Assembly: GCA_022824225.1 (NCBI GenBank)
Contig: JAJEAH010000046.1
Coordinates: forward strand, 80,910-141,399
Length of the DNA: 60,490 nucleotides
Source of the DNA: Chloroflexota bacterium
GTDB lineage: Bacteria; Chloroflexota; UBA11872; VXOZ01
Reading direction: 5' to 3'
Notes under the pieces: model-generated
Seen by the model: the letters and a program-made list of their open reading frames with translations, nothing else
The model's database searches: none
Told to the model about the DNA's origin: nothing
In this document: positions 11,982-15,699 of the stretch, piece after piece
How the letters are laid out: each line of letters opens with the position of its first letter
Position numbering within the stretch: the stretch's first letter is position 1
Position numbers and translations under genes: made by a program

Positions 11982-12010
11982 CTCCCCAAGCCACAAGAAA
12001 GGTGCGTGCC

Positions 12011-12979
12011 ATGGCTACCGTACACCGCCACGAACCGAGCATCTACTACTACACGTTTGGCCCCCACGAACCGGCGCTGCGCCTCAATTCCGGCGACCGG
12101 GTCATCGTGCCGACGGCGGACGCCGGTAGTTGGGACCGCAACGGCGACCAGCTTCCGCCGGAGCAACGGCACACCTTGCCCGACACCGAACTGCGCTACT
12201 CTAATCCGCAGGTCGGCCCCTACTACGTGGAGGAAGCGGAAGTGGGCGACATCCTGTGCGTCCGCATTCTGCGCGTGGACTTGAACCGCGATTGGGCGTT
12301 TTCCCGCTTCAATCCCGGTTTCGGCAATCTGGGCGTGGAGGACTATCCCGCCGGCCCCACGGGTCTCAACGCACCGCTGCCGCAGAAATACTTCCATTGG
12401 GAGCTTGATCACGCCAACGGCACGGCCACGCTGGACCTGCCTGCCAGCACGTTGGGCAGCATCACGATCCCGTGCCACCCCTTCCTGGGCTGCATTGGCG
12501 TGGCGCCGCGCTTTGGCGAGCACATCAATACGCTCTCCTCCGGCAATCACGGCGGCAACATGGACTGCGTGGAAACCCAGCCGGGGACGACGGTGTACTT
12601 GCCGGTGTTCGTGAAAGGCGCGTACCTGCAATTCGCCGACGTGCACGCCGCGCAAGGCGACGGCGAACTCTGCGGCGTGGCGCTGGAAACGACGGCCGAG
12701 GTGGAAGTGGAGGTGGAGGTCTGCAAGGGCGGCGATCCCATCGACTGGCCGCGTTTCGAGGACGACGAGTGGCTCATGGTGGCCGGCAACGCCCGCCCGC
12801 TCATGGACGCCTACCGCATCGCCCACGTGGAACTCATCCGCTGGCTCGCCAGCGACTACGGCTTCGATCAGTGGGAAGCCTTCCAGGTGGTGTCTCAAGT
12901 CGGCCGCACGCGGGTGGGGAACGTCGTCGACCCGAACTACACGGTGGTTGCGAAGTTTCCGAAGCGGTATTTGCCGTAG
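12011..12979 (+). CDS. Acetamidase/formamidase family protein (1)
   Basis: A 322-residue metal-dependent amidase-family protein that would release ammonia from short amides such as formamide. Family signs: the N-terminal beta region with [36 protein letters not shown], the central PCHPFLGCIGVAP, and the conserved block SGNHGGNMDC followed by PGTTVYLPVFVKGAYLQFADVHAAQGDGELCG, which holds the metal-binding His/Asp residues. ATG 12011 is chosen because AAAGG lies about 9 bases upstream; GTG 12002 in the same frame is less likely. Twenty-nine bases separate it from the ThDP enzyme, so one operon is likely. A paralogue sits at 37394-38326. Confidence 0.9.
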   Translation: MATVHRHEPSIYYYTFGPHEPALRLNSGDRVIVPTADAGSWDRNGDQLPPEQRHTLPDTELRYSNPQVGPYYVEEAEVGDILCVRILRVDLNRDWAFSRFNPGFGNLGVEDYPAGPTGLNAPLPQKYFHWELDHANGTATLDLPASTLGSITIPCHPFLGCIGVAPRFGEHINTLSSGNHGGNMDCVETQPGTTVYLPVFVKGAYLQFADVHAAQGDGELCGVALETTAEVEVEVEVCKGGDPIDWPRFEDDEWLMVAGNARPLMDAYRIAHVELIRWLASDYGFDQWEAFQVVSQVGRTRVGNVVDPNYTVVAKFPKRYLP

Positions 12980-13080: not shown

Positions 13081-13917
13081 ATGACGGATGAAGATCGGGT
13101 GCGCTTGCTCCACATGGTCGATGCTGCAAAGAAGGCAGTAGCCCTGGTTTCCGACACGTCTTTGGAGCAGTACACTGCGGCAGAGAACTTTGTCTTGCGC
13201 GCCGCTACAGAGAGACTCATTGGACTCGCTGGCGGGGCGGCCCACCATGTCTCGAGCGGCCTCAAAGCGCAGCACCCAGAGATTCCCTGGCGGCAAATCG
13301 CTGACATGCGCAACCACTTGACCTATGGGAACGTGCCTGAGGATAACAAGATCGTCTGGCAAGCGGCAACGGAACATGCGCCGCATCTTCTTGCAGAGCT
13401 AGAACACTTACTGAGCACCTTGCCCAAGGCGACGCCTACCAAACGCGCCAAGGAGCGGGGGACAAGCCCCCGCGCTACGGCTTGGCAGCGAGGATCAAGC
13501 GACCTTGTGGAAGATGACGTGCTCGGCCAAGAGAACGCCAACCGAGTCCGTGTGCCTGGGCAACGCGCCATAGCTCCTACGCGAGAATACGTCCTGGAGG
13601 AGCTCTTCAAGGTCCGCGCGACGCTGCGCAGGTTTGGCGTGCGGCACATTGCGGTCTTTGGTTCGGTCGCCCGCAATACTGCTTACGCCGACAGCGATAT
13701 CGACATTGTTGTAGACATTCCGCATGGGCACATCACGCTTGACAACTTCTTCGGTCTTCAGGACTTTCTGAAAGATCACTTTCAGCGGAAAGTGGACGTG
13801 ATAACCGAGAGCAGTCTCAAGCCTTTTGCACGTGACCTGGTGATGCGGGACGCGGTTTTTCTCGAGGGATTGCATGAGGCAGAAATGGAGACAGAGCAGC
13901 CGCTCTCGCGGGCGTAG
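13081..13917 (+). CDS. HepT-like (HEPN) domain fused to MntA-like minimal nucleotidyltransferase
   Basis: One 278-residue protein joins the two halves of a type VII toxin-antitoxin pair. Residues ~1-112 are HepT/DUF86-like (YTAAENFVLRAATERLIGLAGGAAHHV, then IPWRQIADMRNHLTYGNV and IVWQAATEHAPHLLAEL). Residues ~168-270 are MntA-like, with FGVRHIAVFGSVARNTAYADSDIDI (an exact GS-x10-D-x-D, Gly194-Asp208) and KVDVITE (third acid, Asp239). In HepT the RNase motif is R-x4-H-x-Y; here it reads R77-NHLT-Y82-G-N84, so the catalytic His and the Tyr that MntA AMPylates are both replaced. The linker (113-167) is encoded partly by a dispersed palindrome at 13455-13473. Usually the halves are separate genes. 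The protein is probably self-neutralised or repurposed. Confidence 0.8.
   Translation: MTDEDRVRLLHMVDAAKKAVALVSDTSLEQYTAAENFVLRAATERLIGLAGGAAHHVSSGLKAQHPEIPWRQIADMRNHLTYGNVPEDNKIVWQAATEHAPHLLAELEHLLSTLPKATPTKRAKERGTSPRATAWQRGSSDLVEDDVLGQENANRVRVPGQRAIAPTREYVLEELFKVRATLRRFGVRHIAVFGSVARNTAYADSDIDIVVDIPHGHITLDNFFGLQDFLKDHFQRKVDVITESSLKPFARDLVMRDAVFLEGLHEAEMETEQPLSRA
13455..13480 (+). repeat. Dispersed palindrome within the HepT-MntA linker
   Basis: GCGGGGG-ACAAG-CCCCCGC (7-base arms) followed by GCTACGG. Read in reverse it is GTAGCGCGGGGGCTTGTCCC, which matches GTAGCGCGGGGGCTTTGCCC at 45639-45658. It is therefore a mobile or dispersed element, not ordinary coding sequence. Confidence 0.75.
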
Positions 13918-14017
13918 TGCGTTTGTTCTGCTTAGAGAAGCCTCAAGGTCGTAGCAATTCGAAATGACCAGTAGCTATCTCATAATTCGGCTTGACCAGC
14001 TTGACGTGCTATTTGTG

Positions 14018-14104
14018 CTTCGACAAGCTCAGCACGAACGGAGCGTTGCCTTTTCCGTTCGCCCCCGTATCAAGTACGGGGCAGGCCCTGAGCCTGTCGA
14101 AGGG
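14018..14104. repeat. Inverted-repeat element of the CTTCGACAAGCTCAG family
   Basis: Left arm CTTCGACAAGCTCAGCACG, right arm CCCTGAGCCTGTCGAAGGG (its reverse complement with a few changes). Between them lie GAACGGA/TCCGTTC and CCCGTATCAAGTACGGG as further palindromes. It sits 24 bases before the D-aminoacylase-like gene. Partial copies are at 48247-48270 and 60379-60404. Confidence 0.8.
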
Positions 14105-14127
14105 CAGTTCTACACAGGGTATTATTC

Positions 14128-15699
14128 ATGACTTTCGACCTCCTCATTCGTAACGGCCGTGTCGTCGACGGCCTCGGCAACCCGTGGTTCCGGGCCGACG
14201 TGGGCATCAGCCAAGGGCGCATCGCCGCCGTGGGACGCTTGGATTCTTGCACGGCGGAGTCCGAGATCGATGCTACGGGAAAGACAATTTGTCCCGGCTT
14301 CATCGACGTCCACAACCACTCCGACCTCATTCTGCTGCGCGAGCCGGACCACACGCCCAAAGTCGCCCAGGGGATCACCACCGAGATTCTCGGTTCCGAC
14401 GGCATCGGCTACGCGCCCATGTCCCCCAGGCACCTGCGCGAGACCGCCCAGCTCTACCACGCCATCAACGGCGGCCTGCCCGCAGACGTGGAACCGTGGC
14501 GGACCATTCCCGAATACCTGGACCGCTTTGACGGAAACGTCGCCGTAAACGTCGCCTACCAGGTGCCCCACAACGCGCTGCGGTTGGCCGTGCTCGGCTG
14601 GGAGAATTGCCCCGCTCACGAAGACGAACTACAGCAGATGGCGCGCCTGGCCGCGGAAGCAATGGAGCAGGGCTGCGTGGGCTTTGCCACCGGCCTCTCG
14701 TACCACCCGCACGTGTTCTGCGGGTTGGAGGAACTCGTCGCCATCAGCAAAGCCGTGGCCGCGTACGGCGGCGTGTACAACACCCACATGCGCTACCACC
14801 TGGGCGATCAGTTCTTGGACCCCGTGCACGAAACGCTGGACGTTGCGCGCCAAGCCGATATTCCGGTGCACATCGCCCACTATTTGATCTCCGGCAAGGA
14901 GACCTGGGGGTTGAGCAGCCAGCGGTTGGCGCTCGTGGATTCAGCGCGCGCCGAGGGCTTGGACGTAACCTTCGACGCCTATTGCTATCCCGCGGGCTCG
15001 ACCACCGGCATGTTCGTGCTGCCGCTCTGGATGGGCGCCGACGGCCCAAGCGCCATGCTGAAGCGCGTGCGCTCGCCCAACGTCATGGCGCAAATTCTCG
15101 ACGAAATCGAGGGCCGGGAGCGGGACTTCTACGCGCGCATGCAGATTACGCACATCGGCCTGGAGCATTACCGCCAATGGGAGGGCCGCCGCCTGGCGGA
15201 CGTGGCGGACGAAGTCGACGAGGCCCCCGACGCGCTGCTGCTGCGGCTGCTGGATGAAGCCGCTTTGGACATCGGCTTCACGTTCCACTTTGGCAACGAG
15301 GCCGACGTGCAGGCCATCATCCAGCATCCTGCGCACATGGGGTCAACCGACGCCATCATGATGGGCAGTTCGCCCCATCCCCGCGCCTACGGCACGTACC
15401 CGCGTTTCCTCGGCCACTATGCCCGCGAACTCGGCCTCTTCACGCTGGAAGACGCCGTCCGGCGTTTCACCGGCTACCCGGCGCAGCGCTTCGGCTTGTC
15501 CGACCGCGGCATCATCCGCACCGGCATGGCCGCCGACATCGTAGTGTTCGACTCCGCAACGGTCATCGACCGCTCCACGTTTGACGACCCTCGCCAGTTT
15601 CCAACCGGCATCGAGCACGTGCTCGTCAACGGCACGCCCGTCATCGCGAACGGCGCTCCCACCGGCGCGCGGCCGGGCAGAGCCCTGCGTAGGGGATAG
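14128..15699 (+). CDS. N-acyl-D-amino-acid deacylase-type amidohydrolase
   Basis: A 523-residue amidohydrolase-superfamily enzyme that would cleave an N-acyl or related amide bond of D-amino acids in the cytoplasm. Seen: FDLLIRNGRVVDGLGNPWFRADVGI (N-terminal beta sandwich), the metal motif H62-N-H64-S-D66 in GFIDVHNHSDL, QGITTEILGSDGIGYAP, GFATGLSYHPHVF, NTHMRY, PVHIAHYLISGKETWG, and the C-terminal MGSTDAIMMGSSPHPRAYGT, DAVRRFTGYPAQRFGLSDRG. Classical D-aminoacylases have GNCG at the 'GSDG' position, where the Cys is a zinc ligand; here it is Asp, so the metal centre differs. ATG 14128 is preceded by a repeat element, so promoter placement is uncertain. It is not part of a visible operon. Confidence 0.88.
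   Translation: MTFDLLIRNGRVVDGLGNPWFRADVGISQGRIAAVGRLDSCTAESEIDATGKTICPGFIDVHNHSDLILLREPDHTPKVAQGITTEILGSDGIGYAPMSPRHLRETAQLYHAINGGLPADVEPWRTIPEYLDRFDGNVAVNVAYQVPHNALRLAVLGWENCPAHEDELQQMARLAAEAMEQGCVGFATGLSYHPHVFCGLEELVAISKAVAAYGGVYNTHMRYHLGDQFLDPVHETLDVARQADIPVHIAHYLISGKETWGLSSQRLALVDSARAEGLDVTFDAYCYPAGSTTGMFVLPLWMGADGPSAMLKRVRSPNVMAQILDEIEGRERDFYARMQITHIGLEHYRQWEGRRLADVADEVDEAPDALLLRLLDEAALDIGFTFHFGNEADVQAIIQHPAHMGSTDAIMMGSSPHPRAYGTYPRFLGHYARELGLFTLEDAVRRFTGYPAQRFGLSDRGIIRTGMAADIVVFDSATVIDRSTFDDPRQFPTGIEHVLVNGTPVIANGAPTGARPGRALRRG

What the first reader, a model, noticed from the sequence alone, without database searches (positions are those of the whole stretch)
13081..13917. HepT and MntA halves of a type VII toxin-antitoxin pair fused in one protein, with the HEPN motif broken
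The MntA half keeps a perfect GS-x10-D-x-D and a third acid. The HepT half reads R-NHLT-Y-G-N where R-x4-H-x-Y is expected, losing both the RNase His and the Tyr that is AMPylated. A fused, catalytically dead HEPN next to an apparently active nucleotidyltransferase could be a locked pair, a stand-alone AMP-transfer enzyme, or a protein with a new role.
Basis: partly seen in the sequence, partly recalled or inferred. Interest (0 to 1): 0.75.

Follow-up and report, generated by a model that had tools for sequence, protein, structure and literature searches.

The report
Repeat insertion fused a toxin-antitoxin pair
In one Chloroflexota-like genome a small repeat element landed in the end of a toxin gene and joined it to its neighbouring antitoxin gene as one protein, whose toxin half has lost its active site while the antitoxin half looks intact; close relatives still carry the two genes separate and intact.

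Summary
One open frame (13081-13917, 278 aa) carries a HepT-like HEPN domain and an MntA-like nucleotidyltransferase. The HEPN motif reads RNHLTYGN, so the RNase His and the AMP-acceptor Tyr are gone; a third family-invariant residue (E52) is also lost. The nucleotidyltransferase keeps every catalytic residue. In four of five congeners the same locus, with identical neighbours, holds two separate genes, hepT then mntA, overlapping at ATGA, with the motif intact. In the window a 145-bp insertion (13411-13555) sits in the last codons of hepT. It carries a palindromic repeat found about 74 more times in this genome and throughout the genus. Because 145 is 3x48+1, it shifts hepT into the mntA frame, and the old mntA ATG is now ATA. 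The HEPN half shows relaxed constraint, indistinguishable from neutral; the MntA half shows no significant change. HEPN-MNT fusions with dead HEPN domains are already described (as 'domestication'). This is a fresh, HEPN-first case with its mechanism visible. Most likely it is an inactivated toxin-antitoxin locus, with an active MntA still possible; a new enzyme is possible but unproven.

The parts
13081..13917 (+). Fused hepT-mntA open reading frame, 278 aa
   Evidence: Pfam; only full-length fused copy among 41 genomes of the class
13081..13410 (+). HEPN (HepT, DUF86/PF01934) half, codons 1-110; 57-68% aa identity to separate hepT of congeners
   Evidence: AlphaFold pLDDT 95-98 over most of it
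13234..13236 (+). Codon 52: Gly where the GEA glutamate is invariant in the other phylum HepT proteins aligned
13309..13332 (+). Broken RX4HXY motif: R77 kept, H82->Y, Y84->N; congeners read RNHLIHGY / RNHIVHGY
13411..13555 (+). 145-bp net insertion in the last codons of hepT (boundary uncertain by a few bases; CTGAGCACC at its start vs CTGGGCAAC just after its end, 7/9, could be an imperfect target duplication)
   Evidence: distance hepT start to mntA start 489 vs 344 in G001 and G005; flank comparison
13411..13514 (+). Extended dispersed repeat inside the insertion; core palindrome GGGGGACAAGCCCCCGCGCT at 13457-13476
   Evidence: about 74 other partial matches in own genome; longer copies in congeners; no other copy of the core in the window
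13556..13575 (+). Relic of the hepT 3' end and the hepT/mntA overlap; old mntA ATG now ATA (13570-13572), read in the mntA frame
   Evidence: 10/14 matches to the hepT tails of G001, G004b and G005, reached by 0.065-0.15% of random window 14-mers
13570..13914 (+). MntA-like nucleotidyltransferase half with intact GS-x10-DxD (G194, S195, D206, D208) and D239; 83% aa identity to G001 MntA
   Evidence: AlphaFold pLDDT 90-98 over residues 161-260
12002..12979 (+). Upstream syntenic neighbour, acetamidase/formamidase
14128..15699 (+). Downstream syntenic neighbour, amidohydrolase

Best explanation
This is a type VII (HEPN/MNT) toxin-antitoxin locus whose toxin is inactivated and whose two genes were fused by one 145-bp repeat-bearing insertion. 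Shown by sequence: relatives keep separate, overlapping hepT and mntA with intact motifs; in the window an insertion in the last codons of hepT moves the hepT frame by one base onto the mntA frame, giving one chain; HepT lost E52, the RNase His and the acceptor Tyr; the mntA ATG is gone; MntA catalytic residues are kept. Inferred: the HEPN half no longer cuts RNA and cannot be AMPylated at the usual Tyr, so the pair no longer works as toxin and antitoxin. The chain would be translated as a folded HEPN, a disordered linker of about 45 residues and a folded nucleotidyltransferase. The MntA half may still be active (for example able to neutralise other HepT toxins of the same cell), and because its own ATG is lost the HEPN frame has to stay open for it to be made. 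The order of events (toxin loss first or insertion first) is not determined.
For: Synteny and separate overlapping genes with intact RX4HXY in G001, G003, G004 (two tandem copies) and G005. Net insertion of 145 bp, with the hepT tail and overlap preserved to its right. Insert carries a dispersed palindromic repeat; about half of 54 copies (28) are open over 144 bp in this phase, so an open fusion needs little luck. Codon model on the window branch: HEPN half omega 0.52 vs 0.14 background (2dlnL 7.4, p about 0.007), not distinguishable from 1 (2dlnL 1.4); MntA half 0.27 vs 0.14 (2dlnL 1.1, not significant); neighbours 0.03-0.05. 9 departures at 20 conserved HepT columns vs 0-5 in all other HepTs; 3 at 16 MntA columns, like others. 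Both domains keep a predicted fold, linker disordered.
Against: The frame has no stop over 834 bp. If it had been fully neutral for the share of the branch that the HEPN rate implies (about 0.14 substitutions per site, my estimate), P(no stop) is about 0.06, ignoring indels. That mildly favours some retained function. Omega for the MntA half is not significantly below 1 either, so activity is not shown. One draft genome only (87 contigs, 95% complete); reads not available.
Confidence: 0.6

Rival explanations
1. [quoted passage not shown]
For: Both domains keep their predicted fold; MntA catalytic set complete; frame open (P about 0.06 under full neutrality); published precedent that MNT-fused HEPN domains typically lack RNase residues and are read as domesticated (PMC3710099).
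Against: HEPN half shows relaxed constraint indistinguishable from neutral; the linker is a translated repeat; fusion in 1 of 6 genomes of the family; no target or partner gene evident nearby.
Confidence: 0.22
2. Pseudogene in early decay: neither half matters and the open frame is a short-lived accident.
For: HEPN active-site losses, relaxed HEPN omega, loss of mntA ATG, repeat insertion; neutrality of the MntA half not excluded (2dlnL 1.9 against omega=1).
Against: MntA half keeps 13 of 16 conserved columns like its relatives, including all catalytic ones, and 83% identity to G001; no stop or frameshift.
Confidence: 0.12
3. Assembly or sequencing error: a one-base indel falsely joins two out-of-frame genes.
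For: The locus comes from a draft genome; 145 is not a multiple of 3, so a one-base error in the insertion would undo the fusion.
Against: Two of the key changes (H82Y, Y84N) are in-frame substitutions upstream of the insertion and mntA has lost its ATG, so the locus is changed in any case; neighbouring genes are clean and syntenic.
Confidence: 0.06

Closest known systems
HepT/MntA type VII toxin-antitoxin (Shewanella oneidensis SO_3166/SO_3165; PMC7641770)
   Same: PF01934 and PF01909 domains; MntA motif GSX10DXD complete; best fold matches include 7bxo and 7ae6/7ae8 HEPN toxins and 1wot MNT
   Different: One chain, HEPN first; RX4HXY broken at His and Tyr, so neither RNase chemistry nor the known AMPylation site is present
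MNT-HEPN fusion proteins with inactive HEPN (HEPN-M 'occasionally fused to MNT'; domesticated nucleotidyltransferases, PMC3710099)
   Same: Single chain of MNT and HEPN with lost HEPN catalytic residues
   Different: The fusions found here in the phylum (L133, L134, L135, L139, L140) are MNT-first; the window is HEPN-first with a repeat-derived linker, found in one species
Repeat elements fused in frame into genes (Rickettsia palindromic elements, ERIC, NEMIS; PMC2229807)
   Same: Short palindromic repeat, many genomic copies, translated as part of a protein
   Different: Here the insertion joins two formerly overlapping genes; the repeat family is unnamed and no mobilising enzyme was sought

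Membership tests
Type VII HepT/MntA toxin-antitoxin | HEPN domain of PF01934 | tested here: met
   PF01934 43.8 bits vs cut-off 23.5
Type VII HepT/MntA toxin-antitoxin | RX4HXY motif in HepT | tested here: not met
   R77-NHLT-Y-G-N; His and Tyr lost
Type VII HepT/MntA toxin-antitoxin | GSX10DXD motif in MntA | tested here: met
   G194 S195 x10 D206 x D208, plus D239
Type VII HepT/MntA toxin-antitoxin | Two separate genes | tested here: not met
   One ORF in the window; separate in congeners
Type VII HepT/MntA toxin-antitoxin | NCBIfam MntA equivalog score (NF047752) | tested here: not met
   41.1 bits, cut-off 60; the separate congener MntAs were not scored
Type VII HepT/MntA toxin-antitoxin | RNase toxicity neutralised by AMPylation | not testable with these tools
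   needs an assay
MNT-HEPN fusion with inactive HEPN (domesticated) | Both domains in one chain | tested here: met
MNT-HEPN fusion with inactive HEPN (domesticated) | HEPN lacks predicted RNase residues | tested here: met
MNT-HEPN fusion with inactive HEPN (domesticated) | Retained by selection across species | tested here: not met
   fusion in 1 of 6 genomes of the family; HEPN omega not distinguishable from 1

The most novel reading that the evidence does not exclude
A functional single-chain nucleotidyltransferase newly born from a toxin-antitoxin pair: one repeat insertion fused the genes, the toxin active site was discarded, and the frame is kept by selection because MntA can now only be made through the dead toxin.
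Probability: 0.22. Interest if true: 0.62.

Novelty: new variant of a known kind. Interest (0 to 1): 0.42.

Why it matters
HEPN-MNT fusions with dead HEPN domains have been explained as domesticated toxin-antitoxin pairs, but I know of no case where the step from two genes to one is laid open. Here close relatives frame the event, and one insertion explains it: a 3n+1 repeat-bearing insert in the toxin's last codons brings overlapping genes into one frame. It gives a concrete, testable model of how a toxin-antitoxin pair can be disarmed and joined. If the protein proves inactive, it is a clear example of toxin-antitoxin decay.

Tried and rejected
(1) The search for related loci with the fused protein in genome contigs: no relatives. 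A second scan with G001 MntA found the congeners (MAGs titled Chloroflexi/Chloroflexota) and distant MntAs; these loci were not examined further for fusions. (2) Chimera by deletion between tandem hepT-mntA copies as in G004: the MntA data reject the window as sister of G003 (p-AU 0.0025), but the HepT data do not reject a topology like the MntA one (p-AU 0.24), and the right flank fits a simple insertion. Left open, not claimed. (3) Joint AlphaFold alignment of HepT and MntA rows failed because MAFFT stacked HepT on the MntA half; replaced by two one-domain alignments. No inter-domain arrangement is claimed. (4) Other long PF01934 frames in the phylum as HEPN-first fusions: in the 14 examined HEPN lay at the C-terminal side, with MNT or an unrelated frame upstream; only the best-scoring part of the phylum hit list was shown. 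(6) DNA fold of the linker: z -1.75, not exceptional beyond the core palindrome.

Full report
OBSERVATION. The window holds an open frame at 13081-13917, + strand, 278 aa. Pfam places a HepT-like HEPN domain at residues 15-109 and a nucleotidyltransferase domain at 182-259, both well over their cut-offs. The motif is R77-N-H-L-T-Y82-G-N84. In an alignment with other HepT-like proteins of the phylum (41 hits, 36 distinct), seven columns are invariant (G51, E52, A53, W70, R77, H82, Y84); the window departs at E52, H82 and Y84, and over 20 conserved columns it has 9 departures against 0-5 in all other sequences. The MntA half departs at 3 of 16 conserved columns, within the range of the others (0-4), and keeps G194, S195, D206, D208 and D239.

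ORIGIN. In the family (6 genomes, one genus) the window genome alone has the fusion. G001, G003, G004 and G005 have hepT and mntA as separate genes at the same place, between the same acetamidase and amidohydrolase, with DnaB, L9 and a TPP enzyme further upstream. G004 has two tandem copies. G002 has no close copy of the pair, and its best amidohydrolase match is only a 37% paralogue. All orthologous HepTs read RNHLIHGY or RNHIVHGY, and all pairs overlap at ATGA.

INSERTION. From the hepT start to the mntA start there are 344 bp in G001 and G005 and 489 bp in the window, a net gain of 145 bp. The left flank follows hepT to about codon 110; the right flank (13556 on) resembles the last hepT codons and the overlap of the relatives (10 of 14 bases before the start position, reached by 0.065-0.15% of random window 14-mers). 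So the simplest account is an insertion at about 13411-13555. As 145 = 3x48+1, the hepT frame moves by one base and continues through the old overlap in the mntA frame. The old ATG is now ATA. The insert carries a palindromic repeat (core 13457-13476) with about 74 further matches in the genome, and longer copies, some with the same left box CTTAGCACCTTGCCCAAG, in congeners. Of 54 other copies, 28 are open for 144 bp in the same phase, so an open fusion is not improbable.

SELECTION. A codon branch model (own implementation) gives omega on the window branch of 0.52 for the HEPN half against 0.14 elsewhere (2dlnL 7.4, p about 0.007; not distinguishable from 1), and 0.27 against 0.14 for the MntA half (not significant; also not significantly below 1). 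The two neighbour genes tested have 0.03-0.05. Absence of stops over 834 bp has P about 0.06 under full neutrality for the time implied by the HEPN rate. So relaxed constraint of the toxin half is supported; retained function of the MntA half is plausible but not shown.

STRUCTURE. With HepT relatives as alignment the HEPN half is predicted at pLDDT 95-98 over most of its length, with a local dip (69) at residues 81-90 around the broken motif. With MntA relatives the MntA half reaches 90-98 over residues 161-260. Residues 131-151 of the linker are below 50 in both models.

WHAT IS KNOWN. [quoted passage not shown] Anantharaman et al. 2013 (PMC3710099) state that DUF86 HEPN is occasionally fused to MNT, that MNT-fused HEPN domains typically lack the RNase residues, that this looks like domestication, and that MNT is almost always the 5' gene. 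In the phylum I found MNT-first single chains, in L133-L135 with RX4HXY intact and in L139/L140 with the Tyr missing (Pfam confirmation of L133 and L135). Repeat elements fused in frame to genes are also known (PMC2229807). The window therefore combines known elements in a new way: HEPN-first order, repeat-made linker, one species, mechanism visible from congeners.

VERDICT. Observation confirmed. Most likely an inactivated toxin-antitoxin locus fused by a repeat insertion, with the nucleotidyltransferase possibly still working. Domestication is possible (about 0.22) and testable.

Noticed in passing
window 13447-13480; G000 contigs C24:156031-156299, C73:9642-9810, C31:25958-26284: A GC-rich palindromic repeat (GGCGGGGGACAAGCCCCCGCGCTAC) is spread through all six genomes of the genus, singly and in short tandem arrays with units of about 58-67 bp; no family name or mobilising gene was sought.
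   Followed up: partly
window 14013-14105: Two more dispersed repeats lie just downstream of the ORF (about 14013-14042 and 14054-14105), with 35 other matches in the genome.
   Followed up: partly
L067, L068, L069, L070: At this locus the hepT gene lies upstream of mntA in the genus, the reverse of the order reported as near universal; G004 has two tandem pairs and the second mntA has a shifted C-terminal frame.
   Followed up: partly
L135 (G028), L133 and L134 (G209): Single-chain MNT-HEPN proteins with RX4HXY intact exist in the same phylum; a fused but apparently active toxin-antitoxin chain deserves its own study.
   Followed up: partly
G001 C365 and G004 C77 (L067, L069): hepT of G001 and of the second copy of G004 are 98% identical in DNA while their mntA genes are 87% identical (the shifted tail of G004b mntA may add to the difference), suggesting recombination or transfer of hepT alone.
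   Followed up: no
G000 C78 (L003): The same genome carries another mntA-hepT pair with an intact RNRLVHAY motif.
   Followed up: no
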